From positions 186,001 through 250,000 of the forward strand of contig JAUHWH010000005.1 of the NCBI GenBank assembly GCA_030424715.1: a stretch of 64,000 bases of DNA, read 5' to 3'. This DNA comes from Bdellovibrionia bacterium. GTDB taxonomy: Bacteria; Bdellovibrionota; Bdellovibrionia; Bdellovibrionales; JAGQZY01. Of this stretch, positions 6,689 through 23,755 are shown piece by piece. The position numbers were made by a program, and so were the translations under genes. The notes beneath the pieces are model-generated. The model saw nothing but the letters and a program-made list of their open reading frames with translations. It did not search any database and had not been told where the DNA came from. Every line of letters begins with the position of its first letter. Positions within the stretch are counted from its first letter, which is position 1.

Positions 6689-7651
6689 ATGAAAGAAACA
6701 AATAGAGAGATACTTAATGAGTTTATGGCTGAGAGAAGTGAAGCAAAGAAACTGGCGGTAAGGCGGTATATCATCAGCATGGTTGAGGCTGTGCCTACCA
6801 ATGAATTTGCCCTACCCCACTACCCAGAAAAACTAAGACCAATTCGACCACCTTCAGAATTATTAAAGATGCAGTATGAGCAGCTCACAACTGGGCTCAA
6901 CATGTTCTACTCAGAAGCAAGGCAACGAACTTTCTACGAAAGACAAATTGAACAGTTTATTACTGATAGTACTAACCTAAGCTTTGAAACTAACACCTGG
7001 ATTGGTGGACGCAATTTTGACTTCTTCTTCGACTCTATCGGCGGTGATGTTTGTGAAGAGTATGGGGAGCGCTTTAAAGGGCTGGCAATTGAAGTCGACG
7101 GTCCCATTCACGATACCCAAGCAAAAATGGGCAAGGACCTAACAAAGCAAGAGCTTCTGCACTCTCTGGATATTGCTATGATAACGATTGAGAATATTGA
7201 CGTTAATCATCAGCAGATAATACAGCTTTGCCAGAGCCTCAAGGAGGCCCCTAGATTAGACTCAAGAGCCAGGGGAAGAGTTCGCAGGAAAGTTTACTTA
7301 GAAACTATTCTCAGCAGAAGCAGTGATGACATGTTGAGCTTCATTTTTGGCTGTGATTTCAAAGGCTTAACGAAGGAGATCAAAAAGCGATCCAAGCAGA
7401 ATAGTTGCCTCAAGGTCGAAATTGGGCTAGTTCAACCAGGTGGTTCTTTGATAATTGAAGAGAAAGAATGGTTAAACTCTGACCAAGCTGCCAACTATGT
7501 GGGTATTTCCAAAGCCTCGCTATTGAATTTAGCCAGCCTGGGGAAAATCAAATACTACAAGTTTGGTCGGAGAAATCGTTATAGGACTGATGACCTTAAA
7601 GAACTTCTTCTTGCACAACCAAGAGGAGGTTCCAATGGGAATCAAATTTAA
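6689..7651 (+). CDS. Vsr/DUF559-like nuclease fused to an excisionase-type helix-turn-helix
   Basis: The frame opens at GTG 6659, but ATG 6689 has a better ribosome binding site (GAGGA, about 8 bases upstream), giving 320 residues. Residues about 75-175 look like a PD-(D/E)XK endonuclease of the DUF559/Vsr type: NFDFFF (Asp 111), then AIEVDGPIH (Glu 135, Asp 137, His 141), a KD pair and ITIEN. From Trp 261 a MerR/excisionase-type helix-turn-helix follows: WLNSDQAANYVGIS, then KFGRRNRYR. In this C-terminal domain 29 of 47 positions match the free-standing excisionase at 20666-20911. The integrase start and its GAGGAGG site lie inside the last codons, so the two are coupled. The fusion is continuous, without a stop or frameshift. 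Confidence 0.75.
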   Translation: MKETNREILNEFMAERSEAKKLAVRRYIISMVEAVPTNEFALPHYPEKLRPIRPPSELLKMQYEQLTTGLNMFYSEARQRTFYERQIEQFITDSTNLSFETNTWIGGRNFDFFFDSIGGDVCEEYGERFKGLAIEVDGPIHDTQAKMGKDLTKQELLHSLDIAMITIENIDVNHQQIIQLCQSLKEAPRLDSRARGRVRRKVYLETILSRSSDDMLSFIFGCDFKGLTKEIKKRSKQNSCLKVEIGLVQPGGSLIIEEKEWLNSDQAANYVGISKASLLNLASLGKIKYYKFGRRNRYRTDDLKELLLAQPRGGSNGNQI

Positions 7652-8726
7652 CGAAAAGAAAAAGGTATGGGAGGCGTTTTATAGTAAGCACCACCCTATT
7701 ACTAGGCAGTCTGTTGGTTTACGCCGTCACGCTAAGACGAAAGCTGAAGCTAAACGGATTTTGCCCGAACTAGTTGTGCAAGTGCAACGCAAGCTCGATC
7801 GGCAAATCACCCCCACGTGGCAAGAGGCTATTATGGGGTGTGAAGAGTCCATGAGGGTATCTGGGTTAAACGAGAAAACGATTAGTACTTACACTAAATG
7901 TTTATTGACCCACACTCTCACTTCGTGGGGCAGCAGGCTCGTAACCGAGATTACTACTGAGGACATCCGCAACCTGGTGCTTAAAAACTTAGCTGATAAA
8001 TCCGAAAGTCATAAAAAAAATATGATTAAGTTTATTAGGAAGGTTTTCACACACCTAGTTGAAAAGGGTGCTCTTAATCGTGACCCCACACCAAATATGA
8101 AGTTTAAGGTTGGTGATAAAATTATGCCTGTCTTAACTTTGTCTGAGGCCAAACAGTTACTTGAGTCTGCTAAGGAACTTGATTCACCCTGGTACTACCA
8201 TTGGGTGTTAGCTCTTTACACAGGGATGCGTAACGGAGAGTTGTTTGCTCTCCGGTGGTCTAAAGTAAGTTTTGAGACTGGTATGATTAAGGTCGACTGT
8301 TCCTGGAACAACATTGATGGTTTCAAGTCCACCAAATCAGGTGATGACCGCATCATTGAAATTGCACCTACACTGAAGTCAGTACTGATGGAATTGAAGA
8401 TCAAGACCGGCAATGGTGAGTTTGTCCTTCCAAGAATGTCTAAGTGGAGTAAAGGAGAGCAGGCACGTGAGTTAAGGAAAACACTTTCAGGACTAGGTCT
8501 TCCGATCATTAGATTTCATGACCTGAGAGCTACATGGGCGACTATTCTACTGTCCCAGGGTATACCGCCGATCAAGGTAATGGCCATGGGTGGGTGGAAG
8601 GATATGAAGACCATGATGGTCTACACCCGAAAAGCAGGAGTAGATATTAAAGGAAGTCTGAATAAGTTGACTCTACACTCGCCTAGACGGTCAGCTAGCC
8701 AAGTCGTTAATTTTCCTAGCCTTTAG
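7635..8726 (+). CDS. int: Tyrosine recombinase (integrase) of island 1
   Basis: Start ATG 7635 is supported by GAGGAGG nine bases upstream, inside the excisionase gene; the product is 363 residues. It has an N-terminal Arm-binding region (about 1-60), a SAM-like core-binding domain (60-150) and a catalytic domain with Arg 199 (TGMRNGE), Lys 231/234 (KSTKSG), His 295 and Arg 298 (HDLRAT), Trp 321 in the usual His/Trp position and nucleophile Tyr 330. All key residues are present, so it should be active. It is colinear without gaps, and about 55% identical by hand count over 330 residues, with the integrase at 20901-22001. It catalyses integration and excision of the element. Confidence 0.93.
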   Translation: MGIKFNEKKKVWEAFYSKHHPITRQSVGLRRHAKTKAEAKRILPELVVQVQRKLDRQITPTWQEAIMGCEESMRVSGLNEKTISTYTKCLLTHTLTSWGSRLVTEITTEDIRNLVLKNLADKSESHKKNMIKFIRKVFTHLVEKGALNRDPTPNMKFKVGDKIMPVLTLSEAKQLLESAKELDSPWYYHWVLALYTGMRNGELFALRWSKVSFETGMIKVDCSWNNIDGFKSTKSGDDRIIEIAPTLKSVLMELKIKTGNGEFVLPRMSKWSKGEQARELRKTLSGLGLPIIRFHDLRATWATILLSQGIPPIKVMAMGGWKDMKTMMVYTRKAGVDIKGSLNKLTLHSPRRSASQVVNFPSL

Positions 8727-11531: not shown

Positions 11532-13277
11532 ATGAGTGCAGAAGAGAAAGAAGTATTTAAAATTAATTGTGTAACCCCAACTTTAATTCAGATTGAAGTT
11601 ATTGATATTGATGAATTCCGCAAAAGCCAATCAGCATCTATTTCAATTGGCACTTATCTTAAAATCTCAGATGACAATAATATTTCTGTTGTCGCTTTAA
11701 TAAAGAGCTATCGGATTAAGGACTCAGCAGTTGGGGTAGAGGCAGCAACAACGGATTCAAGGATTTTTATAATAGATGCTGAACCAGTTGGCTTTATAAA
11801 TGCAGAAGGTAAATTCAGGCGAGGAGGTCAGCAAATTGCCATACCACCGTCAAATGTAGAAGTTGCTTCAGAAGAAGTGCTAAAAAGTATTTACGAGTCA
11901 GTTGAAGATGAAAAGGAGTTTTCATTTGGAACTCTTATGCAAAACAAGAGCATTCGTGTAAAAGTCGATGGGGATAAATTTTTTAGCAAGCACATTGGAG
12001 TTGTAGGTTCGACTGGGTCAGGAAAATCGTGCACTGTCGCAAAAGTAATCCAAGAGGCGGTAGTAGCTGGCGGAACTAGCAAAAAAGCTGGTGCTTTAAA
12101 CAACTCCCATATTGTAATATTTGATTTACATTCTGAATATAAGACAGCCTTCCCAGATGCCAATTATCTGTCCATAGAGAATTTAGTTTTACCCAGCTGG
12201 CTTTTGAATGCAGAAGAACTTGAAGAAATATTTATTGAGAGTAACGAGCAAAACTCACACAATCAAATATCCCAATTCCGTCAGGCTGTGGTTCTAAATA
12301 AAAGAAAACACAACCCTGATGTTGATAAGGTATCATACGATACACCAGTTTATTTTAATGTGAATGAGGTCTACAATTATATTTATAATTTGAACAATGA
12401 GATGATTGGCAAAAACCCTGGTGAAGGAAAGCCTAAACTGGCGGATGGAACTCTAATTGATAATCGAGAAGACAAATATTTCGATGCAGAGTTGGCTTTT
12501 GCTCCACAATCACAAAAATCAGGAGAAAAGGCATCTGGTGGACCATTTAATGGAGAATTTGACCGCTTTGTAATGCGATTGGATGCGAAAAGAAATGATT
12601 CTCGATTAGATTTCTTGATGAACCCAAAAATTGAAGGGAAGGAGTGTAAAACCGAACACTTAGAAGAGACTGTCAGGCAGTTTCTTGGGTACGCAAACAA
12701 GAGTGAAGCAAATATAACCATCATTGATTTAAGTGAAATCCCTTTTGAGGTTCTTAGTATTGTTGTTTCATTAATTTCCAGAATTCTATTCGATGTGTTT
12801 CTTAAAATTAGAAAGACCAAATCAACGGATGACGAGACTCCTTTTTTAATTGTTTATGAGGAAGCCCACAATTACGTTCCGCGAAGCGAAGAGGCAAAGT
12901 ACAAAACCGTGAAAAAGTCCATTGAGCGAATTGCGAAAGAAGGTAGAAAATATGGTTTATCATTAATGATGGTAAGCCAAAGACCTTCTGAGATTTCAGA
13001 AACAATATTTTCACAATGTAATAACTTTCTGGCCATGCGCTTAACCAATCCGACAGATCAATCATATGTGAAGAGATTGTTGCCTGATGTTGTCAGTGCA
13101 ATTACTGAAAATCTACCAGCTCTTGAAAAACGTGAAGCACTTGTCATTGGAGATTCTGTGGCGATTCCAACACTAGTTTATGTAGATACTCTTGAAAACA
13201 AACCAAGATCTACTGATGTGGAATTTCAAACAGAATGGAAAAAGGACTGGGTAGATATAGACTTTTCAGTTCTTTGA
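11532..13277 (+). CDS. HerA-family hexameric ATPase of the defence operon
   Basis: The 581-residue protein begins with a HAS-barrel-like region (about 10-120), then the RecA-like HerA/FtsK-type motor: Walker A GSTGSGKS at 159-166, a large insertion, Walker B FLIVYEEAH at 438-446, then GRKYG (471-475) and SQRPSE (482-487), hallmarks of HerA translocases. It starts directly after the preceding stop with GGAG eight bases upstream. In archaea HerA drives NurA nuclease; in bacterial defence islands it partners SIR2 or DUF4297 effectors, as here. It is the last gene of the operon; a long non-coding region follows. Confidence 0.88.
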   Translation: MSAEEKEVFKINCVTPTLIQIEVIDIDEFRKSQSASISIGTYLKISDDNNISVVALIKSYRIKDSAVGVEAATTDSRIFIIDAEPVGFINAEGKFRRGGQQIAIPPSNVEVASEEVLKSIYESVEDEKEFSFGTLMQNKSIRVKVDGDKFFSKHIGVVGSTGSGKSCTVAKVIQEAVVAGGTSKKAGALNNSHIVIFDLHSEYKTAFPDANYLSIENLVLPSWLLNAEELEEIFIESNEQNSHNQISQFRQAVVLNKRKHNPDVDKVSYDTPVYFNVNEVYNYIYNLNNEMIGKNPGEGKPKLADGTLIDNREDKYFDAELAFAPQSQKSGEKASGGPFNGEFDRFVMRLDAKRNDSRLDFLMNPKIEGKECKTEHLEETVRQFLGYANKSEANITIIDLSEIPFEVLSIVVSLISRILFDVFLKIRKTKSTDDETPFLIVYEEAHNYVPRSEEAKYKTVKKSIERIAKEGRKYGLSLMMVSQRPSEISETIFSQCNNFLAMRLTNPTDQSYVKRLLPDVVSAITENLPALEKREALVIGDSVAIPTLVYVDTLENKPRSTDVEFQTEWKKDWVDIDFSVL

Positions 13278-14071
13278 TACTCTCCGGCTTACCCCCTACC
13301 CTAGTAGATCTCTCGTTGGCGATAGCCAAACTCCAGACTTAGCCCCCTTATGAGCACCACTAATAGCACCTGAGAAAATGCGATTAGTACAACCCACCAG
13401 TTAAGAACAGGTGCCGTTAGTCCCTGTCCACAGCCATCGACCGTTATCTGGAGGTGAAGGTTGCCCTTCATGTAATCACATCCCCAAGTCGTCGGCTCGA
13501 CATGGCTATACCCCTGTCTCAGTTGAATCAATCCATTGAATAACTAAAACGTCGACTGATCAGCCTCCTGGATAGTAACTACCCAGCCCCTACTGACACC
13601 TCGTCACGAAGTGGAAATGTGAATGAGTTATTAGCTGTCTACTCCCACCAAAAATTTAAACAACAGGTCCCCCTGAAGTTTCGCCCAGCAACTCACAAAC
13701 TGTTTGGCAAACCTTGTTAGGTATTTGCACCTTGCCTGATTTTACGCCCAGCAGGCTACGCATTGGCGTTTTTAAAACAGAGCAATCAAAACCCGTATTT
13801 TTAAGAAAAGAAAGAGAATAATTTTAAAAGCAAAAAATAATTTAAAAATTTAGCAAGCGCTAAGGGGAAAACAGCAATTTTCAAAACAAAGGGTTCGGAA
13901 AATTTTTTCGACCAGTCTCTTGAGGTCTGAACCAATTCTTTAACAAACCTTTGCGTTTTGGCGCGGGCCTTTGCCCCCGTTTTAAATTTAAAGCTCTTAG
14001 AGGGCGTTTATGGAGGCCGCTTTTTTAAACTATTTTAAAATCGTTTTCCATTTTAAAAGAAAGGGGCTTTT
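13278..14071. other. 794-base non-coding region, AT-rich and dense in TTTAAA palindromes
   Basis: I see no convincing gene here. The left part (13.28-13.65 kb) is ordinary in composition; the right part (13.77-14.06 kb) is very AT-rich. TTTAAA occurs nine times at 13655, 13771, 13823, 13841, 13981, 13987, 14024, 14034 and 14052. A small GGGC-CTTT-GCCC hairpin lies near 13966. The region could be a replication or transfer origin, a regulatory RNA locus or decayed DNA; nothing decides between these. Confidence 0.5.
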
Positions 14072-14275
14072 ATGAAAGAAAAACAAACGACAAAGGCTTT
14101 GATTGGTAAAGAGGCAGAAGAGTTACTTAAAAAAATTACCAAGGAGAAAAATGGCCCTGAGGCCAACAAAACTTTTGCAGCTCTCAGTGGATTGGCCGTT
14201 GCATCCGTCATAGATGATGAGAGTCTGGCAAAAAGACTATTATCCTTAGTAAAACATGTGAGAACCAGTAAGTAA
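14072..14275 (+). CDS. Small unknown 67-aa island protein
   Basis: ATG 14072 has a good ribosome binding site (GAAAGGGG). The 67-residue product is basic at the N-terminus and helical (EAEELLKKITKEK, then AALSGLAVASVIDDE); it resembles no family I know and has no signal peptide. It lies alone after the long AT-rich region and converges on the exported-protein gene at 14359-15090. Short lysine-rich proteins of this kind are common in mobile elements as regulators or accessory proteins, but no function can be assigned. Confidence 0.55.
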   Translation: MKEKQTTKALIGKEAEELLKKITKEKNGPEANKTFAALSGLAVASVIDDESLAKRLLSLVKHVRTSK

Positions 14276-14336
14276 TACGATGGACGTTTTCCTTAAAGAG
14301 AATCCAATTAGCTGTGGTCAGACAAATTTTCCAGAA

Positions 14337-14358
14337 AACGTCGTCAACGTCGTTTCTT
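14337..14358. repeat. AACGTCGT repeat, copy 1
   Basis: AACGTCGT occurs twice in tandem (14337-14344 and 14346-14353). The second copy extends to AACGTCGTTTCTT (14346-14358), an exact 13-bp match to 20631-20643 in the same orientation. It lies between convergent genes. Confidence 0.45.
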
Positions 14359-15090
14359 TTAAGATTTTTCTCTCAGCTTACGGATGGCTGCGGCAGGTTG
14401 CTCAAGAAAGTTGTGTATGAACATGGTCTTATCTGTACCACTTACAGATAATCTGTTTGGCTCAATCTTTCCTTTCCCTTTAGAAGTGAACTGCCAGGCA
14501 ACAGTGAAGTGTTTACCAGTTACCTTGTCATTTACTTTTGCTTTTAAAATCCATGCTTTGCCATTTTTCTCCCATTTAGGATTGGCATTGAGAACTCTAT
14601 AAAACTCATAAAGCTCAACGGCCGCTATAGACACAGTTTTGTAATTAGAGTCCTGAGTTTGAAACTCAGATTTCAAGAACTCTTGGTTTGGCCCAGAACT
14701 CTTGTGCTTTTTAAGCAGTGAAGCAATCATCCGGCCTTTGCCGCCTTTGGCTTTTTTTCTGGAAGCTACAGATTTATTTACCTTCTTATTGAAAAGTGGG
14801 CCCCAAGAAACAAACTCATGACGAATTCCTCCCAGTTTCTTGACCTTTATGTCCACCTTGCCAACTGTGCGAAGATCAATACCCATATCTATATATTTCT
14901 TGATGTTGGATCCTTTTTCTATTCGAAAAATATTCTGCTCACCACCATCATAGTTTTCCAAGGTAATCTCATAACCAAAAGCGCTACCAAGCCAAGTAAC
15001 ATCAGTTATTTTTCCCTTAAGTGTAGTTTCTTCCTGCGCCAGCAACGCAATGGGCATTAGCAAAAAGACTACTAACAATACCTTATTCAT
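14359..15090 (-). CDS. Exported protein of unknown function
   Basis: A 243-residue protein with a clear signal peptide (KVLLVVFLLMPIALLAQ, cleavage near residue 18). The N-terminal third looks like a small beta-barrel region (LKGKITDVTWLGSAFGYEI); the centre has a basic linker rich in Lys, Gly and Ser (about 110-125); the C-terminal half contains AWQFTSKGKGKIEPNRLSV and may be a second beta domain. It starts 10 bases after the XRE regulator gene, so the two are one transcript. No catalytic motif is visible. An exported protein paired with a repressor in a mobile element could act in surface exclusion or transfer, but that is inference. Confidence 0.65.
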   Translation of the reverse strand: MNKVLLVVFLLMPIALLAQEETTLKGKITDVTWLGSAFGYEITLENYDGGEQNIFRIEKGSNIKKYIDMGIDLRTVGKVDIKVKKLGGIRHEFVSWGPLFNKKVNKSVASRKKAKGGKGRMIASLLKKHKSSGPNQEFLKSEFQTQDSNYKTVSIAAVELYEFYRVLNANPKWEKNGKAWILKAKVNDKVTGKHFTVAWQFTSKGKGKIEPNRLSVSGTDKTMFIHNFLEQPAAAIRKLREKS

Positions 15091-15100
15091 ACTTCCTCCT

Positions 15101-15406
15101 TCAGTCTTTCGACTCTTTTTCGATTGTTAATCTGTACCTCATGTCCCCATCTACAAACTGGCTGGAGAACAAAATGGAATTTCCAGGCTTATCGTCTTTC
15201 ACATTAAACAAGAGTGTCGTCACAGATAGGCTAAGGTGGTCAGCAAGACGTTTTATTAAGTGAAGATTCTTTGCTGTTGGTAAAACTCCCTGTGTGCAGT
15301 TATGCAGAGTGGACGTTGGTACACCACAAGCTTTAGCTAGAGAATTGACGGACTCATTGCGCGCTTTTAATTCTCTGTTTAAAACTTGTGATAACCTAAC
15401 TTCCAT
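15101..15406 (-). CDS. XRE-family helix-turn-helix regulator
   Basis: The 101-residue product has an XRE (Cro/CI) helix-turn-helix over about residues 5-65 (NSLAKACGVPTSTLHNCTQG) and a short C-terminal tail (FSSQFVDGDMRYRLTIEKE). It is the first gene of a two-gene minus-strand operon with the exported protein. Two inverted repeats lie 24-81 bases upstream of its start (15430-15487), so negative autoregulation is likely. It resembles the short regulators of phage and integrative-element control regions. Confidence 0.85.
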   Translation of the reverse strand: MEVRLSQVLNRELKARNESVNSLAKACGVPTSTLHNCTQGVLPTAKNLHLIKRLADHLSLSVTTLLFNVKDDKPGNSILFSSQFVDGDMRYRLTIEKESKD

Positions 15407-15429
15407 AACATCCCATCAATCGGTTGTTC

Positions 15430-15487
15430 ATCCGAGGTCAATTAGATAAATTCCATGGCTCGGATAATTGTCCCATCCGTGGGATAA
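15430..15487. promoter_or_regulatory. Inverted-repeat operators upstream of the XRE regulator
   Basis: TTGTCCCA-tccg-TGGGATAA (15468-15487) is an inverted repeat of 8-bp arms with one mismatch. ATCCGAG (15430-15436) and CTCGGAT (15459-15465) form a second 7-bp inverted repeat. Both lie in the promoter region of 15101-15406 and are good candidates for its operator. Confidence 0.5.
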
Positions 15488-15502
15488 ACACATTTAATAA
15501 AC

Positions 15503-15530
15503 CGCACCTAAATCGGCCGTTATAGGTGCG
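15503..15530 (-). terminator. Hairpin between resolvase and XRE genes
   Basis: CGCACCTA (15503-15510) pairs perfectly with TAGGTGCG (15523-15530) across a 12-base loop. On the minus strand it lies downstream of the resolvase gene and is followed by GTTTATT, so it may terminate that transcript. The 9-mer TAGGTGCGC recurs at 15597-15605, within the end of the resolvase gene. Confidence 0.45.
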
Positions 15531-15577
15531 CTTTGGTCGGCATTGCTAAACCACCGTAATCACCCGGCCCAACTTCA

Positions 15578-16192
15578 CTAATTTTCTGGGGGTTTTAGGT
15601 GCGCCTGAATTGTGCGCGTAACCATCCCCATAGAGTAACCAGTCTTCCGACAAATTTCTCTATAGCTCATCCCTTGCTTTCGTAAGTTCAAAATCATATG
15701 AGGAATAATTGCCGATGCTTTAGGGCGCCCTATTTTCTTACCTTTACTCCTGGCATGTTCGATACCCATTTTGGTTCTTTCAGAGATAAGGGATTTCTCG
15801 AACTCTGCAAAAGCTCCAATTATGTGAACTAATAGCCGACCACTTGCTGTAGTCATATCCAGCTGATCTTTTAAACTGATAAACTCCACGCCCAATTCTG
15901 TAAAATCTTGAAGGGTAACTACCAAGTGCTTTAACGATCTGAATAATCGATCCAGCTTTACTACAACAACTACATCGATTTTACGTTCATGGGTTAAGGA
16001 TTTTAATTTTTTGAGACCGGGGCGATTAGCTGTTCCTCCAGAATAACCATAATCAACAATCTCTTCTGTAAGTATCCAATTTCGTGTGTGGCAGTAGCGA
16101 CGAAGTTCTTCGAGCTGAACTTCTGGTTTCTGATCTCCTGTAGCTGTGCTACATCGAGCATAAATTGCAGCTCTTACAATGGAGTTCTGCAA
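15578..16192 (-). CDS. Serine recombinase (resolvase/invertase family)
   Basis: The 204-residue product has the full resolvase fold: YARCST with catalytic Ser near residue 15, KLDRLFRSLK, the conserved GAFAEFEKSLISERTKMG helix, and a C-terminal helix-turn-helix (YREICRKTGYSMGMVTR). The start is TTG, supported by AAAGGAC eight bases upstream; the frame has no better ATG. Small serine recombinases resolve cointegrates or invert DNA segments at res-like sites. It is divergent from the DUF6119 gene across an AT-rich gap of about 145 bases, where a res site might lie. No transposase is adjacent. Confidence 0.92.
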   Translation of the reverse strand: MQNSIVRAAIYARCSTATGDQKPEVQLEELRRYCHTRNWILTEEIVDYGYSGGTANRPGLKKLKSLTHERKIDVVVVVKLDRLFRSLKHLVVTLQDFTELGVEFISLKDQLDMTTASGRLLVHIIGAFAEFEKSLISERTKMGIEHARSKGKKIGRPKASAIIPHMILNLRKQGMSYREICRKTGYSMGMVTRTIQAHLKPPEN

Positions 16193-16338
16193 TACAACCG
16201 TCCTTTTTTGCTCCCTTTTTAAGCATGCACTTTATTTTCCAAAATGAAAAGCGAAAAATTTTAAATAATTTTAATGAGTTAGAGTTAAACTTATTTTATT
16301 TATCTAGTCTCCCCCTTCAACCGATACATAAAAGTATT

Positions 16339-17934
16339 ATGGCAAATAAAATTGAAGGCAAAACAAACAAGCTTACTATTAGTCTGGTAAAGAAATCCAT
16401 CAAGGATCTAAAGGCCGTCATTGGAGAAGATTACCAAGACGACGTCGAAGAAGTTAAGATTCCAGAGTGTGAATTAGCCTGCTTTATATTTAAAGAACCA
16501 AATGTAACCTCTCCATCTTGGTACAAGTATCTCGAGTCAGCAATTGATGGTTTACCAGATACCCAAACGAGTCCATCAGCGGTTTTAGTTATTAAGACAA
16601 AAAAGAATATGTTTGCGGTAAGCTTTGGATATGGTCGATACCTCATAGAGGATTCAGCAATTGTTCCAGACTTTGGATTGAAAGTTTCTTTAAATGCAAT
16701 ACCAAGTGACAAAATTAAAACAGTTGATAAAAGAACACTTGAACAGATGGCATTACATTCCCGTCAACAAGCTGTAGTTCCAGTTGACTTTAGTACTTTT
16801 GAATTAGAGGTTGATAGAGATCTAGTAAAATCAATTGAGGGGCAAATCGATGAAAAATTAGGGAGCTATTTAAAAGGATCCATTAATTTGTCAATCTCTA
16901 CCAAATTGCCACTATCTAAATTGAGTGAGCTTTGCTCGAAACTTCACAGTATCTATCTCAAAAAAGACTACCAACAAGAGTTTGGGTGGATTGACAATGT
17001 AAAGCCAATTCAAGACCCATCTAAATCTGCCGCACTCAATCTTGCTCTTGTGGATCAAATTAATAAAAAATCTTTTCCCGGAATATTTCTTGGCGCACCA
17101 GAGTTAATTGATGATATTGATGTCGGAGGGTATAAATTCCGAGGCCCAAGAAATGGTTCAACATATATCTTATTCCCCTCCATTAATTCTTACGCTTCAT
17201 TGCGATTATCCAACAAAAATAGAAATCCCATAACAATCGAGCAATTAAAGTCCGATAAAATAATTTGCTTTGATCGAGATTCAAAACCCAACAAAAAGCA
17301 CCAGTGGTCAGTCTATAAGTGTATTCATGCTGAAATTAAATTTAAAGGTGACACTTATAAACTTCTGGAAGGCAATTGGTATGAAGTAGATTCAAACTTC
17401 ATATCAAGAATTGACAAGCAGATTAAAGCTATTCCAGTCTGTAAAGAAAAATTATTGGATCTCAAGTCTGGAGAGTCTGAAAATGATTACAACAATAGAT
17501 TGGCTTCTCACCTAAAAGGTACCTGCCTAGATGCTCAACTAGTGACACTAAAAGGACGCTCTAGGTTTGAGTTTTGTGACGTCCTGAAGAAAGACAAAAA
17601 ACTGTTCCACGTCAAAAAGCACTATGGTGCTTCCTCAATGAGTCATCTATTTTATCAAGCTTATGTCTCTGGTCAGACTTACTGTCACTTCCCTCAATGT
17701 CGACCTGAAATTGCAAAATTGAAAGGCGTAAAAAAAGCTAAGTTCGAATCCGTAGTACACCCTAAAACTTTTAAAACATCGGACTACGAAATCGTGATTT
17801 GCGTAGCTTCTTCAAAAGCCAAGCCCATTGGTGATGTACTATCCTTCTTCTCAAAGATTAGCTTGGTTCACAAGCACAGAACACTATCAAGTCTTGGGTA
17901 TAAAGTCAGTGTTGCAATTATCCCAATTGTTTAA
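16339..17934 (+). CDS. DUF6119 / TIGR04141 family sporadically distributed protein
   Basis: The frame is open from 16165, but the first part would overlap the divergent resolvase and is low-complexity; ATG 16339 gives 531 residues and the family-like N-terminus (KLTISLVKKS). Hallmarks of the family are visible: FAVSFGYGRYLI, PDFGLKVSLNAI, an LxVDRDL segment, and C-terminal FEFCDVLKKDKKLFHVKKH followed by SSMSHLFYQAY. That C-terminal block (Glu/Asp...HVKK) has the look of a nuclease-type active site. TIGR04141 proteins appear erratically in defence and mobile islands; their function is not established to my knowledge. No strong ribosome binding site is present. Confidence 0.8.
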   Translation: MANKIEGKTNKLTISLVKKSIKDLKAVIGEDYQDDVEEVKIPECELACFIFKEPNVTSPSWYKYLESAIDGLPDTQTSPSAVLVIKTKKNMFAVSFGYGRYLIEDSAIVPDFGLKVSLNAIPSDKIKTVDKRTLEQMALHSRQQAVVPVDFSTFELEVDRDLVKSIEGQIDEKLGSYLKGSINLSISTKLPLSKLSELCSKLHSIYLKKDYQQEFGWIDNVKPIQDPSKSAALNLALVDQINKKSFPGIFLGAPELIDDIDVGGYKFRGPRNGSTYILFPSINSYASLRLSNKNRNPITIEQLKSDKIICFDRDSKPNKKHQWSVYKCIHAEIKFKGDTYKLLEGNWYEVDSNFISRIDKQIKAIPVCKEKLLDLKSGESENDYNNRLASHLKGTCLDAQLVTLKGRSRFEFCDVLKKDKKLFHVKKHYGASSMSHLFYQAYVSGQTYCHFPQCRPEIAKLKGVKKAKFESVVHPKTFKTSDYEIVICVASSKAKPIGDVLSFFSKISLVHKHRTLSSLGYKVSVAIIPIV

Positions 17935-18066
17935 TAATTCATTTTGCGCAACGCTCCATCCCCATTTTCATGTTTTTCCCTGAAAATTTAAAGCTACTAA
18001 TTTCAATAGTTTAGTAACGAGTAACTCGGATCGTTTTCCTACTAGGACATAACCATAGGAGGAAAA

Positions 18067-18735
18067 ATGATCCAAACTTATAAACAACCTAAAAGGACAG
18101 CAATTACCGATGCAATGGAGTTACTCCAATACGATGAATGGGAGCTAGTCGACTCTATTCAAACAGGCTTATTGAAGCCAGTTGCATTCTGTGAAGCCAC
18201 CAAAGAATGGAACGAGATCTATGGTGGATTTTTCTGTACAACTAAACTCCAAATTAGTTGCCATTTTCTTTTATCGGACAATTTGCCCAATGATTGGCAT
18301 TTGCTCGAGACCGTTCCTTTAAAAGGAAAATTTCTTTATGATTGGCTTGAAGAAGAAACGAATACTTACTACCAATACGAGATTCAAAAAATTGTAAACA
18401 CTAATGACATTTATATTTGCGGTTACTCTATTTTGAAACTAATTAATGATTACTGGATATCACCAGATTTTAAAACTATTCTATTCGATTATCAACACTA
18501 CGATTTAACCCCTAATCAGTCTCACGTGATAGAGTTTCTATTCAATCAAAGAGAAAAAGGTAAATTCTGTATACGTCAGGAAGATGTCTTAGATGCCATC
18601 GAATATGAGGGTTTGGACCGAAGGTTGTCGAAAATATTTCGTAAAGGTGGGAAGAAGCACCCTTTATGGCGAAAGATATTCCACTTTCCACAAAGGGGCT
18701 GGATAGGACTAAAGCTTCCCAAGGAGCTTCACTGA
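18067..18735 (+). CDS. Unknown 222-aa protein with C-terminal winged-helix-like domain
   Basis: ATG 18067 has a GGAGGA ribosome binding site. The N-terminal 140 residues are unassigned and rich in Trp, Tyr and Phe (DEWELVDSIQTGLLKPVAF). From about residue 150 a pattern typical of small winged-helix domains appears: DLTPNQSHVIEFLF, then EDVLDAIEYEGLDRRLSKIF, ending in GWIGLKLP. It lies directly upstream of the 11-bp repeats and the hairpin that precede the DUF669/ATPase module. A regulatory or replication-initiation role for the module is possible but is inference from position. Confidence 0.6.
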   Translation: MIQTYKQPKRTAITDAMELLQYDEWELVDSIQTGLLKPVAFCEATKEWNEIYGGFFCTTKLQISCHFLLSDNLPNDWHLLETVPLKGKFLYDWLEEETNTYYQYEIQKIVNTNDIYICGYSILKLINDYWISPDFKTILFDYQHYDLTPNQSHVIEFLFNQREKGKFCIRQEDVLDAIEYEGLDRRLSKIFRKGGKKHPLWRKIFHFPQRGWIGLKLPKELH

Positions 18736-18736
18736 T

Positions 18737-18769
18737 GTCCGGTAATTGTCCGGTCGTTGTCCAGAATTA
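18737..18769. repeat. Three tandem 11-bp repeats (GTCCGGTNNTT)
   Basis: GTCCGGTAATT (18737-18747), GTCCGGTCGTT (18748-18758) and a degenerate GTCCAGAATTA (18759-18769) follow one another exactly one helical turn apart, starting two bases after the stop codon of the 222-aa gene. Iteron-like arrays of this spacing place bound proteins on one face of DNA. Confidence 0.55.
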
Positions 18770-18776
18770 AAAAAAG

Positions 18777-18823
18777 CCTCCTGGTAGTTGTTAGTTCAGA
18801 AACAACGAAACATTACCAGGAGG
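18777..18823 (+). promoter_or_regulatory. Hairpin sequestering the ribosome binding site of the DUF669 gene
   Basis: CCTCCTGGTA (18777-18786) is perfectly complementary to TACCAGGAGG (18814-18823), which contains the AGGAGG ribosome binding site of the gene at 18831. An upper stem GTTGTT/AACAAC (18787-18792 with 18801-18806) closes an 8-base loop; a 7-base bulge separates the stems. The fold would block translation initiation unless melted or remodelled. Confidence 0.65.
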
Positions 18824-18830
18824 TAAATTT

Positions 18831-19211
18831 ATGAAATTATCACCAAAAGGTCCAAGGCGAATCGAACCAGGTGAATATTTAGCAAAAATTGTAGAGGCCG
18901 AGCATATAGCCGTACCAGGGAAGAAGGAGTACGTACACTGGACTCTTGAGATAATTGTTGGGGAGTTCAAGGGAAGAACCTTCAAACACAGAACAATGCT
19001 GGAGGGGCAGTACCAGTATCAGCTGTTTCAGTTTTTACGCGTCTGTATCCCGCACTACAATGGCCAAGAGTTTGAACTCAATGAACAACTCGAAAAACAT
19101 ATGGTGGTTTATCTTGAATACGACAAGAACTATAACGGAATTGAACTTCCCTTTATTAGGGTCAGAGATGTGAAACCAGCCGTTATGGCAGGCCCCGGAG
19201 GCGCAGCATGA
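18831..19211 (+). CDS. DUF669-like phage-type protein, probable ssDNA-binding accessory
   Basis: A 126-residue protein beginning MKLSPKGPRRIEPGEYLAKI. The pattern (beta-rich, PGEYxAKIVEAE, VHWTLEIIVGEFKGRTF, a Gly/Ala-rich C-terminus) fits the DUF669 family found next to phage helicase/primase genes. DUF669 proteins are usually about 130-180 residues, so length is at the low end. It has a perfect AGGAGG site placed 7 bases from ATG, but that site lies in a stable hairpin. It overlaps the following ATPase gene by four bases (ATGA), indicating coupled expression. Confidence 0.65.
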   Translation: MKLSPKGPRRIEPGEYLAKIVEAEHIAVPGKKEYVHWTLEIIVGEFKGRTFKHRTMLEGQYQYQLFQFLRVCIPHYNGQEFELNEQLEKHMVVYLEYDKNYNGIELPFIRVRDVKPAVMAGPGGAA

Positions 19212-20614
19212 AAAACGAGCTGTTAATCAACTCTGTCCCCCTTGAATCAGTATTTCATGATCAAAACGGTGATCCTTTTGCAAGATTTTACGATGGTAAA
19301 AGAATTCAGGTCACACCTATTAGAGGGAGGGATTTTCGAAGATACATTCTTTATTCTCATTTTTGTGTCACAGGTAGTGGCCTAAAGGAGAAAGACATTG
19401 ATGAAATTGTTATCGACATTGAAGCGAGAGCATTGTTTGAGGGACCAAAGAGAGAACTGGAAGTACGCTGCTCAACTGAAGAAGGGAAGATATTTTACGA
19501 TGGAATAGATTATTCTGTGGAAATCTCAAGAGATGGTTGGAGTATAATACCATTACCCCCAATCGTCTTCAGAAGGTACGCAGGTTTAAAAGCGCAAGTG
19601 CCACCAGAAAGAGGTGGGTCATTTGACGATTTGTTTGATCTTTTTAATATTAAGTCTGACACGGACAAAATTCTTATAAAAACATTTGTGGTAAGTGCTT
19701 TCTTGCCAAATATTCCTCACCCTGTATTGGCTCTCCATGGCCCTCAAGGATCAGGAAAAAGTATGTTGCTAAGATTTTTGGTTAACCTGATTGATCCTTG
19801 TACCGTAGAAGATATCCAGAATATGGAGCAAAGAGAGCTTTTTCAAGCAATAGCCCATAGGTGGCTGGTCCCCTTCGATAATCTTACTGAAATTTCAAGT
19901 AAGGTTTCCGACATTATTTGTAAACTAGTAACAGGAGCATCGTTCAGTAAAAGAAGACTGTATTCTGATGAAGATGATTTAATTTGGTCATTGCGTAGAG
20001 TAGTCATTTTAAATGGAGTAAACCTCCCAGTAAACAAACCAGATCTTCTTGATCGCTGTATTATCATCGAATTAAATCGAATTGGAGAATCGGAAAGAGT
20101 ATCAGAGAAAGTCCTCAATAAAAAATTTAAAGAATTAAGACCTAAGGTATTAGGTGCATGCTTTGACTTAATATCAAAAGCTCTTGGGACGCATGAAAAT
20201 ATAGAGTTGCCTTGGCGACCAAGACTAGCCGATTACGCAATCTGGTCTGAAGCAATCACCCAAGCATGTGGACTGGAACCAGAAGTATTTTTGAATGCCT
20301 TTAAAGAAAATAAAGAAAGACAAGATTACGAGTCCCTTGATGCTTCTGCCTTAGCAACAGTTATTCAACATTTTGTTGATGACGAAGGTCATTTCGAAGG
20401 GACTGCAACAACATTATTGAGAAAACTTCGAGATGTAGCAGAACAAGCGGGTGTTGAGATCAGAGAGCTCCCCAAAAGCCCTAGAAGCCTTGGCAGGAGA
20501 ATTCAGGAAGTTAAACCTAGTCTGGAAGCTATCGGAATTATCGTTAATCAGACTAGGGGACAATCTCGTATCCTCCAGATATTCCCCAAGAAATTGGAGA
20601 AGCTTTATGTGTGA
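19208..20614 (+). CDS. Mobile-element replication ATPase (phage primase/helicase-associated type)
   Basis: A 468-residue protein with Walker A GPQGSGKS at 178-185, followed by PFDNLTEIS, KLVTGASFSKRRLYSDEDD, a VVILNG strand and DLLDRCIIIEL (arginine finger region). This ordered set is characteristic of an ATPase widespread in phages and integrative elements as a stand-alone relative of primase-helicase motors. The N-terminal 170 residues are unassigned; the C-terminal part (about 370-460) probably forms a winged helix. Together with the DUF669-like gene it makes a compact replication module. The next genes are excisionase and integrase. Confidence 0.78.
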   Translation: MKNELLINSVPLESVFHDQNGDPFARFYDGKRIQVTPIRGRDFRRYILYSHFCVTGSGLKEKDIDEIVIDIEARALFEGPKRELEVRCSTEEGKIFYDGIDYSVEISRDGWSIIPLPPIVFRRYAGLKAQVPPERGGSFDDLFDLFNIKSDTDKILIKTFVVSAFLPNIPHPVLALHGPQGSGKSMLLRFLVNLIDPCTVEDIQNMEQRELFQAIAHRWLVPFDNLTEISSKVSDIICKLVTGASFSKRRLYSDEDDLIWSLRRVVILNGVNLPVNKPDLLDRCIIIELNRIGESERVSEKVLNKKFKELRPKVLGACFDLISKALGTHENIELPWRPRLADYAIWSEAITQACGLEPEVFLNAFKENKERQDYESLDASALATVIQHFVDDEGHFEGTATTLLRKLRDVAEQAGVEIRELPKSPRSLGRRIQEVKPSLEAIGIIVNQTRGQSRILQIFPKKLEKLYV

Positions 20615-20624
20615 CGTCGTTATC

Positions 20625-20643
20625 GACGTTAACGTCGTTTCTT
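20625..20643. repeat. AACGTCGTTTCTT repeat, copy 2, with palindrome
   Basis: GACGTTAACGTC (20625-20636) is a perfect 12-bp palindrome, overlapped by AACGTCGTTTCTT (20631-20643), an exact match to 14346-14358. GACGTCGT also occurs at 20613-20620. The site lies between the ATPase stop and the excisionase start, a plausible regulator or excisionase binding site. Confidence 0.5.
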
Positions 20644-20665
20644 CCCAAATTTGGAGGGTTCTGGT

Positions 20666-20911
20666 ATGAGTAACACCTTTCCCTATAGAGGGAAGCGCAA
20701 AAAGCGTTGGCTCTTTGATAATTTAGATACGGATGATATTTGGCTCAACAGCAAGCAAGCGAGTGAGTATTTAGGGATATCGACTCAAACTTTGATGAAT
20801 CTTTGCTCCAGAGGTGAAGTTACTTATTACAAGTTTGGCCGTCGGAATCGTTACAAGCTAGCTGATTTGCGAAGTCTTCTCCAAATTGAAAGGAGAGGAT
20901 ATGGGATATAG
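20666..20911 (+). CDS. xis: Excisionase-type helix-turn-helix protein of island 2
   Basis: ATG 20666 is preceded by GGAGGG, giving 81 residues. The domain is a MerR/excisionase-type winged helix: WLNSKQASEYLGIS, recognition helix TLMNLCSRGEV, wing YYKFGRRNRYK. It matches the C-terminal domain of the nuclease fusion at 6689-7651 at 29 of 47 positions. Such proteins bend att DNA and set the direction of recombination. The integrase ribosome binding site and start codon lie within its last codons, as in island 1. Confidence 0.88.
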   Translation: MSNTFPYRGKRKKRWLFDNLDTDDIWLNSKQASEYLGISTQTLMNLCSRGEVTYYKFGRRNRYKLADLRSLLQIERRGYGI

Positions 20912-22001
20912 ATATGATCGAAAGATTGATAGTTGGATTGCTTATGCATCGAAAAGACATCCATTAACTCGTGTGAGTAAAAGCCTTCGTCGTAAAGCAA
21001 AGACAAAGGCTGAAGCCATTCGACTGGAGAAACAATTAATAGCCGAAATTGAACGTAAGTTTTTAAAAGAGACTGTTCCTGATTGGCAAGTTTGTATCGA
21101 AAGAATGTTGGAGTCTTTTAAAGATCGAGGCATAACTGAAAAAACTATTGATTGTTATTGGCGGTGTTTAAAAGCACACACCCTCCCAGATTGGGAGGAG
21201 CGACCTATTAACTCGATTACGACCCAAGAGATTCGAGACCTTATTAAAGAGAAGGTTGGGCATCGCTCGCCCAGCCATCAAAAGAATATGCTTAAATTTA
21301 TCCGAAGCGTCTTCACGTTTGGCATCGAAATTGGAGCAATCCAACGAGATCCAACACCAAGAATGAAATTTCGGATCGGTGATAAAATTAAGAAAGTTCT
21401 CACCGAAGAGCAAGTAAGATTCTTCCTTAATAAGGCCAAGACTTTGGGTGTTGAATGGTATCCACATTGGGCCACAGCGGTATATACCGGCATGAGGAAC
21501 GGCGAACTTTACGCCTTAACCTGGGATAAGGTGAACATCAAAGATCGACAGATGCTTGTCGACTCATCTTGGAATAACAAAGATGGGTTTAAATCGACGA
21601 AATCTGGCGATGATAGATGGGTGGAAATTGCTCCAAACCTTGTTCCTTTGTTACAGGAACTTAAGTTGCAGAGTGACGACACAAACTTTGTTCTTCCCAG
21701 AATAGATAAATGGGATAAAGGAGAACAAGCTCGTGAGTTGCGTATGTTCCTAACTGGTATAGGACTTCCTACGATCCGCTTTCATGACCTAAGGGCCACC
21801 TGGGCGACGCTTTTATTAGCGAAGGGTGTTGAGCCTATTAAGGTTATGATAATGGGTGGATGGAAGGATTTGAAAACCATGCAAATTTACGTACGCAAAG
21901 CTGGTGTTGATATCAAGGGAACAACTGATTGCCTTGATCTTCATTCACCGTCTAGCGAGACAGCGAGAATTTTGGTTTTCAATGACCGTGGTGAGAAGTA
22001 G
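20901..22001 (+). CDS. int: Tyrosine recombinase (integrase) of island 2
   Basis: Start ATG 20901 follows AGGAGAGG inside the excisionase gene; 366 residues. Catalytic residues are in the same positions as in the first integrase: Arg 199, Lys 231/234, His 295, Arg 298, Trp 321, Tyr 330. No gap is needed to align the two through residue 330 (about 55% identity by hand count, about 66% in the catalytic half). The C-terminal tail diverges. As the two integrases differ, they probably come from separate acquisitions at related or identical att sites rather than a recent duplication. The att site is expected just downstream. Confidence 0.93.
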   Translation: MGYRYDRKIDSWIAYASKRHPLTRVSKSLRRKAKTKAEAIRLEKQLIAEIERKFLKETVPDWQVCIERMLESFKDRGITEKTIDCYWRCLKAHTLPDWEERPINSITTQEIRDLIKEKVGHRSPSHQKNMLKFIRSVFTFGIEIGAIQRDPTPRMKFRIGDKIKKVLTEEQVRFFLNKAKTLGVEWYPHWATAVYTGMRNGELYALTWDKVNIKDRQMLVDSSWNNKDGFKSTKSGDDRWVEIAPNLVPLLQELKLQSDDTNFVLPRIDKWDKGEQARELRMFLTGIGLPTIRFHDLRATWATLLLAKGVEPIKVMIMGGWKDLKTMQIYVRKAGVDIKGTTDCLDLHSPSSETARILVFNDRGEK

Positions 22002-22086
22002 TTGGAGCCTGGCTAAGTGTATGATAATTTTCACTATGTTTTGGTTCCACCAATATTATGGGAAAATCAGAGGGGTTTGAGGAAAG

Positions 22087-22752
22087 ATGTTTATAGGTCA
22101 CTTTGCAGTGGGTCTTGGGGCAAAGAAAGTAGCTCCTGAGCTCAATCTTGGTTTTTTATTTATTGCCTGCCAATTGTTGGATCTGATTTGGCCAGTCCTT
22201 GTTTTAGCGGGTGTTGAGAAAGTCAGTGTGGACCATTTGGCGACGGCAGTGACCCCGCTAAATTTTGAGCACTACCCCTATTCACATAGTTTAGTGATGA
22301 CTGTTGCCTATAGCTTACTTGCTGGAATTGCTGCTGGGCTTGTCTTTCAATCGAAACGACTAGGTATTGTCTTTGGCTTGGTTACATCTTCTCATTGGAT
22401 ATTAGGTTTTGTTACACATAGACCTGACTTGCCAATATGGCTTGAAGGACAAAAGGTTGGACTTGGTTTGTGGAACAATATTAGCCTGTCAGTATCGATT
22501 GAATTGTTAATCTTTGCCACAGGCATTTTCTTGTACCTTAAATCAAAAAGTAATTTCAGCAGAAAAAGAAAAATGTGTTTTTGGGCCCTAATTGCCTTTC
22601 TTCTCGTGATTTACGCAGGAAATGTATTTGGCCCAAAGCCACCGGCCGAAACCCCTTCAGCAATGATTGCAGGGCCAGCCTTAGCAATGTGGCTTATTGT
22701 ATTATGGGGATACTTGGTAGACAAAGGAAACAAAGAAACTCACTTGATGTAA
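22087..22752 (+). CDS. Polytopic inner-membrane protein, possible membrane-bound metal-dependent hydrolase type
   Basis: A 221-residue protein with about six hydrophobic segments. The opening FIGHFAVGLGAKKVAP, and the HYPYSHSL motif near residue 60, resemble the DUF457/YdjM group of membrane-bound proteins with conserved His residues; a later THRPDLP may contribute another. Assignment is tentative. It is the first gene right of the island 2 integrase, with GAGGAAAG before ATG, and probably marks the return to ordinary chromosome. It converges on the AraC gene. Confidence 0.6.
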   Translation: MFIGHFAVGLGAKKVAPELNLGFLFIACQLLDLIWPVLVLAGVEKVSVDHLATAVTPLNFEHYPYSHSLVMTVAYSLLAGIAAGLVFQSKRLGIVFGLVTSSHWILGFVTHRPDLPIWLEGQKVGLGLWNNISLSVSIELLIFATGIFLYLKSKSNFSRKRKMCFWALIAFLLVIYAGNVFGPKPPAETPSAMIAGPALAMWLIVLWGYLVDKGNKETHLM

Positions 22753-22822
22753 GGTTTTGTAGTAGGCTTGAGCTTGAAGTGGGCGAAAACAAGAGCTGAC
22801 AAAGCCGTAACCACCCCCACCC

Positions 22823-23755
22823 TTAACGCCCTGGTTCGGCTTTACCTTTGATTTTTCCCGGACTCACTCCTTTTACTCGCTTGTAGGCTCGAGCAAAAGC
22901 GGCTTCACTCTCGTAACCTAGGCGGTGTGATACTTCACCGATGGAAAGCTTTTCAACTCGAAAGTACTTTTCGGCAAGATCGAACTTCACTCCTCGAACA
23001 AATTCTGAGGGACCCATCCCAAATATTTTTATAAACCTGTCGGTAAAAGCAGAGCGTGACATCCCAGCTGTATCGGCCATCTCTTGGGTCGACCACTTTT
23101 TAGCAGGGCTTTTTTGAACGTTGTTTATAACCCTAGTCAGTCGTTCGTCAGAAATCGCTTTTATTAGAGGTTGCTTCCCTTCGTTTTGGCTAAACCAATT
23201 GCGAATGGCCTGAAAGACCAACACTTCACTGAGATGCATGATTATTTCGGTACTGGCAAAAGCTTGCTTTTTTGCCTCTTCAAAGAGGAACTTAAAAGTG
23301 TTTTCGGCCCACACCCTTTCGGACTCATCCCACTTCTTAACAACGACCAACTCAGGCAATCCTTTTAGTAGCAACTGTGCCAAAGGGTGATTAAGCTTCA
23401 CAGCTCCGCATAATGTTAGCGAATCCTTCCCATTGCCACCGTGTTTGAGTATCTCATAGTGGCTTGTGATTTCGTCCCGGTCGATGTCAAATAGTGGTGT
23501 CATCTTATTGCACTGACCATCAAAGAAGTAATGATCACGTCCATTGGGTAGTAAAGACAATTGGCCCTGAGAAATTTTATGGACCTTTTTCTGCTTGGGA
23601 AACCTTACCCACGCCTCGCCGTGCACCACTAAATGAAACAACAACATATTAGGCATGGCCGGCATATCAATACCCCAGGGAGCCGAAAGCTCAGCCCGGC
23701 TGAGAAACACTCGATCAATTTCGACCCCAGCAAAGGGGTTATGTATATCGCTCAT
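22823..23755 (-). CDS. AraC-family transcriptional regulator with cupin sensor domain
   Basis: A 310-residue regulator. Residues about 15-110 are a cupin-like ligand domain (LLFHLVVHGEAWVRF, GQLSLLPNG); the C-terminal 100 residues are the AraC double helix-turn-helix (WSTQEMADTAGMSRSAFTDRF and SIGEVSHRLGYESEAAFARAYK). It is divergent from a NAD(P)-binding protein gene, with a 108-base shared control region containing repeats. By analogy with similar pairs it probably controls the divergent oxidoreductase operon. The inducer is unknown. Confidence 0.92.
   Translation of the reverse strand: MSDIHNPFAGVEIDRVFLSRAELSAPWGIDMPAMPNMLLFHLVVHGEAWVRFPKQKKVHKISQGQLSLLPNGRDHYFFDGQCNKMTPLFDIDRDEITSHYEILKHGGNGKDSLTLCGAVKLNHPLAQLLLKGLPELVVVKKWDESERVWAENTFKFLFEEAKKQAFASTEIIMHLSEVLVFQAIRNWFSQNEGKQPLIKAISDERLTRVINNVQKSPAKKWSTQEMADTAGMSRSAFTDRFIKIFGMGPSEFVRGVKFDLAEKYFRVEKLSIGEVSHRLGYESEAAFARAYKRVKGVSPGKIKGKAEPGR

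What the first reader, a model, noticed from the sequence alone, without database searches (positions are those of the whole stretch)
18777..18830. Hairpin that buries a perfect ribosome binding site
Ten consecutive pairs sequester AGGAGG of the DUF669 gene, with a second 6-bp stem above a bulge. Such a leader would hold translation of the DUF669/ATPase module shut until temperature, a protein, an RNA or upstream translation opens it. Replication of the element would then be under translational control.
Basis: seen in the sequence. Interest (0 to 1): 0.65.

Follow-up and report, generated by a model that had tools for sequence, protein, structure and literature searches.

The report
Hairpin locking a mobile element's SSB gene
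In a mobile DNA element of a Bdellovibrio-like bacterium, the start signal of a gene for a single-strand DNA-binding protein is folded into a very stable RNA hairpin, so the protein can probably be made only when something opens it; this is a known kind of switch, here on a gene of the element's likely replication module.

Summary
The hairpin is real. Ten Watson-Crick pairs (18777-18786/18814-18823), 13 with flanking pairs, bury AGGAGG (18818-18823) of the DUF669 gene (-23.8 kcal/mol, z -5.75). It is the best SD-covering helix of 43 SD-led genes in the window; none of 87 in 180 kb of the same contig reaches its score. The host is Bdellovibrionota (titles). DUF669 is an SSB family (PMC5928155); it precedes a VapE-like ATPase, an excisionase-like gene and an integrase. 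The only other DUF669-ATPase pair found (G016) has its RBS in an unrelated 11-bp stem: structure kept, sequence not. Of 16 ATPase loci, most lack such a stem. I read it as a translational lock on the SSB. Melting costs about 8 kcal/mol even at 65 C, so it is no thermometer. The opener is unproven. Two window-specific leads: an 11-codon SD-led leader ORF (18735-18770) ends 5 nt before the 5' arm, and the same stretch can pair with the hairpin's loop, a predicted nascent state with a free SD. Known kind of control; unreported leader in the searches made.

The parts
18776..18788 (+). 5' arm (anti-SD arm) of the lock hairpin; Watson-Crick core 18777-18786
18812..18824 (+). 3' arm of the lock hairpin; contains the SD AGGAGG 18818-18823
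18831..19211 (+). DUF669-like gene (126 aa), SSB family (phrog_378 E 1.8e-6; Pfam PF05037 20.7 bits, just below its cut-off of 21)
   Evidence: family function: PMC5928155 passages
19208..20614 (+). VapE-like ATPase (468 aa), start overlaps the DUF669 stop by 4 nt; has its own SD
18735..18770 (+). candidate leader ORF MSGNCPVVVQN*, SD AAGGAG 18721-18726 (8-nt spacing), start overlaps the ORF222 stop (TGATG), stop 18768-18770 lies 5 nt before the 5' arm
   Evidence: SD-led ORF of this geometry in 0.5% of 5000 shuffles; not seen in relatives
18733..18770 (+). upstream stretch that can pair with the hairpin loop and upper 3' arm (18764-18770 with 18791-18797; 18754-18760 with 18802-18808; 18733-18738 with 18810-18815), leaving the SD free
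18736..18768 (+). three tandem 11-bp units TGTCCGGTAAT/TGTCCGGTCGT/TGTCCAGAATT; the TGTCC triple with this spacing occurs once in the genome; possible operator or iteron
18769..18775 (-). A7 on + (T7 on -): on the minus strand the hairpin followed by U7 looks like an intrinsic terminator
18034..18066 (+). weaker hairpin TTTTCCTACTA/TAGGAGGAAAA over the RBS of ORF222 (18067-18735); helix not unusual by shuffles (p 0.27-0.29)
20874..20900 (+). hairpin GTCTTCTCC/GGAGAGGAT over the integrase RBS, inside the 3' end of the excisionase-like gene
20901..22001 (+). tyrosine integrase of the element (longest ORF from 20886)

Best explanation
The hairpin is a cis-acting translational lock on the element's SSB (DUF669) gene. 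In any completed transcript reading in from upstream (ORF222 or further out) the 5' arm 18776-18788 pairs with 18812-18824 and hides the SD, so the SSB, and by coupling perhaps the ATPase, is hardly translated while the element sits silent in the chromosome. I think it opens through ribosomes or transcription kinetics rather than temperature: either ribosomes on the leader ORF (18735-18770) cover the start of the 5' arm when they terminate, or the nascent RNA holds the alternative fold with a free SD until RNA polymerase has passed the SD. Shown by computation: the inverted repeat, its position on the SD, its stability, its rarity, and a like stem on the other DUF669-ATPase pair. Inferred: repression in vivo, coupling to the ATPase, the opener. 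Rough odds: lock works as stated 0.8; opener ribosomal or kinetic 0.5; leader ORF specifically 0.3.
For: Stem -23.8 kcal/mol, z -5.75. Best SD-covering helix of 43 window genes and above all 87 SD-led genes of 180 kb of the same contig. G016 DUF669 (26.7 bits, over its cut-off), which also precedes the ATPase: SD GTGAGG in an unrelated 11-bp stem, shuffle p 0.0035-0.006, MFE z -4.3. In integrase-linked relatives, co-directional genes upstream of the integrase show SD stems at shuffle p<=0.01 in 6 of 84 (window leader included), against 2 of 104 flank genes and 1 of 87 host genes (one-sided Fisher 0.026 for 6/84 v 3/191, 0.058 without the window's own leader). Opening cost 11-13 kcal/mol at 20-37 C. 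Leader ORF geometry in 0.5% of 5000 shuffles. Folding of growing 3' ends gives the SD-free fold until about 18820 and the lock from 18822 on; upstream-loop duplex -19.7 v -10.2 +/- 2.5, 0 of 1000 shuffles. Precedent: SGI1 S004-repA, where a stem masks the repA SD and leader translation in cis is required (PMC7826253 passages).
Against: No homologous leader exists to test covariation: ORF222 occurs in 1 of 368 genomes (the own one) and this DUF669 in 1 of 59 by protein search. Most ATPase relatives lack an SD stem: of 16 ATPase starts tested only L033 is at p<=0.02, and counting co-directional upstream genes only the window, L021, L022, L023, L028 and L033. DUF669 genes L036 and L037 in other contexts have no comparable stem. 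The closest element (L020/L040, integrase 98% identical) has only 5 pairs at its ATPase (p 0.89). No leader ORF with a good SD was found before the other hairpins. The alternative fold is significant as a duplex but not as net gain after subtracting upstream self-folding (192 of 1000 shuffles; cost-of-opening measure 18 of 1000), and it was not significant in L023 or either L049 leader. The leader stop is 60 nt from the DUF669 start, too far for ordinary reinitiation (recalled). The ATPase has its own SD.
Confidence: 0.6

Rival explanations
1. Outside-transcript protection: the lock only silences read-through transcripts, and the productive mRNA starts inside the hairpin, lacking the 5' arm (the principle recalled for IS10 transposase).
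For: Predicted transcripts starting at 18783 or later need 2.6-4.2 instead of 11.3 kcal/mol at 37 C to free the SD. The element is integrated, with co-directional genes upstream.
Against: No promoter-like site places a start there: none in the consensus scan, and in the looser scan the + strand sites end at 18535 or further upstream. Bdellovibrionota promoters may not fit the consensus.
Confidence: 0.25
2. Intrinsic terminator for the minus strand: hairpin plus U7 ends antisense transcription or makes the 3' end of a counter-transcribed RNA against the SSB leader; SD burial is a by-product.
For: Minus-strand fold -21.8 kcal/mol, z -4.08, followed directly by UUUUUUU.
Against: No minus-strand promoter above 8 of 12 matches in 18770-19300; no minus-strand gene nearby; the U-run is absent at the G016 stem (sequence), while SD burial recurs.
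Confidence: 0.12
3. DNA-level signal: origin or operator made of the three 11-bp TGTCC repeats, the A/T stretch and the palindrome, bound by the element's replication or regulatory protein.
For: TGTCC triple with exact 11-bp spacing is unique in the genome; it lies next to the SSB-ATPase genes.
Against: The inverted repeat is placed on the SD with 27 nt between its 10-bp arms, unlike a usual operator; no such repeats were seen before the other leaders read (by eye).
Confidence: 0.1
4. SSB autoregulation: the DUF669 protein binds its own leader and stabilises or opens the hairpin, as T4 gp32 represses its own mRNA.
For: The locked gene is an SSB-family gene; T4 gp32 is an autogenous translational repressor (PMC535899, abstract start in the listing).
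Against: gp32-type repression (recalled) works on unstructured RBS regions; here the RNA alone seems enough to repress. Nothing here tests binding.
Confidence: 0.15

Closest known systems
SGI1 S004-repA leader (IncN2/N3-like replicon of a genomic island), PMC7826253
   Same: Integrated mobile element; a stem-loop masks the SD of a replication gene; a preceding small ORF lies by the stem.
   Different: There the leader ORF overlaps repA and is proven essential; here the leader ORF stops 60 nt before the gene, is unproven, and the locked gene is an SSB, not an initiator.
Leader-peptide-coupled rep genes of plasmids (R1 tap-repA, ColIb repY-repZ; recalled)
   Same: RBS of a replication gene buried in RNA structure with a leader ORF; a possible antisense feature.
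   Different: No antisense RNA shown, no Rep homology tested as such, no coupling shown.
Translational attenuators of erm/cat type (recalled)
   Same: Mutually exclusive leader folds, one with a free SD, and a short ORF over one strand of the switch.
   Different: No inducer, no stalling peptide known; the SD-free fold is much less stable at equilibrium (about -29 v -40 kcal/mol at 30 C).
IS10 outside-transcript protection (recalled)
   Same: Stem that would silence read-through transcripts of an integrated element.
   Different: No internal promoter found.
DUF669 SSB of phage HK620 (PMC5928155)
   Same: Same Pfam family as the locked gene.
   Different: There it sits beside sak4; here beside a VapE-like ATPase.

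Membership tests
RBS-sequestering cis hairpin | Stem covers the SD at the annotated start | tested here: met
RBS-sequestering cis hairpin | More stable than expected by chance | tested here: met
   z -5.75; 1st of 43; 0 of 87 as high; but 8th of 43 by cost of opening in a fixed context
RBS-sequestering cis hairpin | Conserved by covariation in homologous leaders | tested here: inconclusive
   No homologous leader found; one non-homologous stem at the other DUF669-ATPase pair
RBS-sequestering cis hairpin | Repression in vivo | not testable with these tools
   needs reporter fusions
Leader-peptide-coupled rep control (SGI1/R1 type) | Short ORF with its own SD ending at or in the stem | tested here: inconclusive
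   present: 18735-18770, SD AAGGAG, stop 5 nt before the arm, 0.5% of shuffles; absent in relatives
Leader-peptide-coupled rep control (SGI1/R1 type) | Leader stop close to or overlapping the next start | tested here: not met
   60 nt apart (sequence)
Leader-peptide-coupled rep control (SGI1/R1 type) | Leader translation required in cis | not testable with these tools
   needs nonsense mutants
RNA thermometer | SD freed within the growth range | tested here: not met
   7.9 kcal/mol still needed at 65 C
Known Rfam leader or riboswitch | Match to a covariance model | tested here: not met
   0 matches at E<=1 in 13000-23000, both strands
Outside-transcript protection (IS10-like) | Productive start inside the hairpin | not testable with these tools
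   no promoter-like site; 5' ends unknown
DUF669 (PF05037) / phage SSB | Profile match over the cut-off | tested here: inconclusive
   window protein 20.7 v cut-off 21 bits; phrog_378 SSB E 1.8e-6; G016 protein 26.7 bits

The most novel reading that the evidence does not exclude
The leader is a bistable, ribosome- and transcription-sensing switch: 18733-18770, which is also the leader ORF, pairs with the hairpin loop in the nascent RNA and leaves the SD free for a short window; ribosome traffic on the leader ORF, and release from the polymerase, decide whether the RNA snaps into the permanent lock. Related integrase-linked elements of Bdellovibrionota would use similar SD stems, with unrelated sequences, on their replication and recombination genes.
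Probability: 0.2. Interest if true: 0.6.

Novelty: new member of a known kind. Interest (0 to 1): 0.42.

Why it matters
Control of integrated elements is mostly described at promoters. If true, an element of relatives of predatory bacteria keeps its SSB, and perhaps its replication module, translationally locked, so that stray transcription across the element is harmless. It gives a compact, testable leader, and a case where structure on the RBS may be kept while sequence is replaced along with the gene module.

Tried and rejected
RNA thermometer: rejected. Rfam family: none. Covariation at the excisionase-integrase junction hairpin: 24 leaders aligned (22 loci of the 28 used, plus two from the window; L052, L053, L054, L056, L057 and L061 left out because I had not fixed their starts), 13 pairs counted. 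Not above shuffles: pairs changed on both sides 216 of 500, pair types 330 of 500, covariation score 52 of 500, cells with a change on both sides 76 of 500, cells paired 24 of 500. So I do not claim that hairpin as proven, although 8 of 26 integrase starts have stem p<=0.05; the coding sequence there may explain it. Shared motif 'CTCCTAACAA..ACCA.AGGAGG' in L029/L059: similar to each other, not unusual by shuffles (L029 p 0.36; L059 p 0.52). Leader ORFs before the other hairpins: none with a good SD. Relatives by single-protein search: none for the ATPase in genome contigs or viral contigs, none for DUF669 in phages or viral contigs; phage and plasmid ATPase hits only about 27-32% identical in the rows listed, not followed. 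Integrase hits in viral contigs (4 loci, 23-25% identical) not followed. Of the 34 loci, 28 were used; L058, L069, L070, L071, L072 and L073 were dropped (too little upstream, fragment, or distant). The gene caller is my own simple script, so gene starts in relatives are approximate.

Full report
Observation. 18777-18786 pairs with 18814-18823 in ten Watson-Crick pairs, 13 with flanking pairs, and the SD AGGAGG at 18818-18823 is inside the 3' arm. The fold of 18770-18840 has -23.8 kcal/mol, z -5.75, 0 of 200 shuffles as good. ATG 18831 is the only start its frame allows, since a stop lies at 18792-18794. I scored, for each gene with a recognisable SD, the best uninterrupted helix covering at least four SD bases from the 90 nt upstream. 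This leader is first of 43 in the window. In 180 kb of the same contig, 0 of 87 genes reach its score of 29 and one reaches 24. The inverted repeat is unique in the 3.13-Mb genome. Against this: by predicted cost of freeing the SD in a fixed context it is only 8th of 43 (7.1 kcal/mol), because of the alternative fold described below.

Setting. The gene is a DUF669-like protein of 126 aa: Pfam 20.7 bits against a cut-off of 21, and phrog_378, single strand DNA binding protein, E 1.8e-6. DUF669 of phage HK620 has been shown to be an SSB (PMC5928155, passages). It is followed by a VapE-like ATPase overlapping by 4 nt, an HTH_17 gene and a tyrosine integrase. Upstream on the same strand are ORF222 and a DUF6119 gene; a resolvase and a Cro-like gene lie on the other strand. 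Integrase relatives lie in Bdellovibrionaceae, Bacteriovoracaceae and other Oligoflexia-type MAGs (record titles). One (L040, the same contig as G028/L020 by length and content) has an integrase 98% identical but an ATPase only 39-41% identical, so modules are exchanged.

Relatives of the lock. The ATPase is found in 17 of 368 phylum genomes, the window's own included. ORF222 is found only in the own genome among 368, and this DUF669 only in the own genome among 59, so no homologous leader exists for a covariation test. G016, however, carries a DUF669 protein (26.7 bits; BLASTP to the window's E 8e-6, 22% identity) followed by the ATPase. Its SD lies in an 11-bp stem with unrelated arms (shuffle p 0.0035 and 0.006; MFE z -4.3). 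The start there is a TTG that I chose by its SD. DUF669 genes in other contexts (L036, L037) lack such stems. I tested 16 ATPase starts (the window plus 15 loci; L025 of the 16 loci fetched was not tested) and the co-directional genes upstream of them. Stems at p<=0.02 lie at the window DUF669, the L023 DUF669, a 124-aa gene of no clear family before the ATPase in L028, the L033 ATPase, and a 66-aa gene in L021 and L022, which are close relatives. The other loci have none. In 28 integrase-linked loci plus the window, 6 of 84 co-directional upstream genes have p<=0.01, against 2 of 104 flank genes (one is itself an integrase of the same family, window 7635) and 1 of 87 host genes; 0 of 22 minus-strand genes in the element region and 1 of 14 unassigned genes also reach it. 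One-sided Fisher is 0.026 for 6/84 v 3/191, 0.058 without the window's own leader, and 0.029 if the 7635 integrase is also taken out of the controls. Enrichment is therefore modest. L049 has two strong cases (15 and 10 bp), on a second tyrosine recombinase and on a DUF927 helicase-like gene.

How it could open. With the 5' end at 18733, freeing the SD costs 13.1, 12.1, 11.3, 10.3, 9.1 and 7.9 kcal/mol at 20, 30, 37, 45, 55 and 65 C; a thermometer is excluded within the model. Two features of the 95 nt between ORF222 and the start may open it. First, ATG 18735 overlaps the ORF222 stop (TGATG), has AAGGAG eight nt upstream, and encodes MSGNCPVVVQN with its stop at 18768-18770, five nt before the 5' arm. 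An SD-led ORF of such geometry arises in 0.5% of 5000 shuffles. From the usual ribosome footprint (recalled) a terminating ribosome would reach about 18780 and cover part of the anti-SD arm. Second, 18733-18770 can pair with 18791-18815. In folds of growing RNAs starting at 18733 or 18700 this SD-free form has pair probabilities of 0.86-1.0 until the 3' end reaches 18818, 0.67-0.88 at 18820, and is replaced by the lock from 18822. The complementarity is strong as a duplex (-19.7 against -10.2 +/- 2.5 kcal/mol, 0 of 1000 shuffles), but the net gain after subtracting the upstream part's own folding is ordinary (192 of 1000 shuffles; 130 of 600 real segments), and the cost-of-opening measure lies at 18 of 1000. 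These are equilibrium folds of truncated RNAs, not a kinetic simulation. Of ten leaders tested, only this one and ORF222's showed a significant upstream gain (2 of 300 shuffles each), and in ORF222's case the extra stability comes from the same hairpin extended, not from a competing fold.

Comparison. The nearest documented system is SGI1, where a stem masks the repA SD and translation of the S004 leader in cis is needed for RepA (PMC7826253, passages). The present leader resembles it in anatomy but fails one defining feature: the leader stop is 60 nt from the gene start. Paper searches listed no paper on a leader of this kind before DUF669 or in Bdellovibrionota elements; I read passages of two papers only, and most subscription journals are not held. 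I call it a new member of a known kind, with a possible new twist in the bistable leader.

Noticed in passing
window 7635-8726, with 6689-7651: A second tyrosine integrase of the same family, preceded by a gene ending in an HTH_17 domain, left of the element studied; its RBS lies in a 13-pair stem (7601-7613/7620-7632), the second best in the window.
   Followed up: partly
window 20874-20900 and integrase starts of relatives: Integrase RBS often lies in a stem within the 3' end of the excisionase-like gene (8 of 26 at p<=0.05); the covariation count was not significant, so coding sequence may explain it.
   Followed up: partly
window 14072-22001 v L020/L040: Mosaic elements: integrase 98% identical to that of a Bdellovibrionaceae MAG while the ATPase is only 39-41% identical.
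   Followed up: partly
window 18736-18768: Three tandem 11-bp TGTCC repeats, unique in the genome, next to the A/T stretch before the lock.
   Followed up: partly
L049 3955-4990: Two genes in a row (tyrosine recombinase, DUF927 helicase-like) each with a long RBS-burying stem of 15 and 10 bp.
   Followed up: partly
window 14339-14367 and 20624-20652: 29-nt direct repeat (79%) containing CGTCGTCAACGTCGTT-like sequence; a similar AACGTCGTTAACGTCGTT stretch is in L003 at about 533-550.
   Followed up: no
window 16165-17934: Large DUF6119 gene (Pfam E 1e-133) of unknown function inside the element, upstream of ORF222.
   Followed up: no
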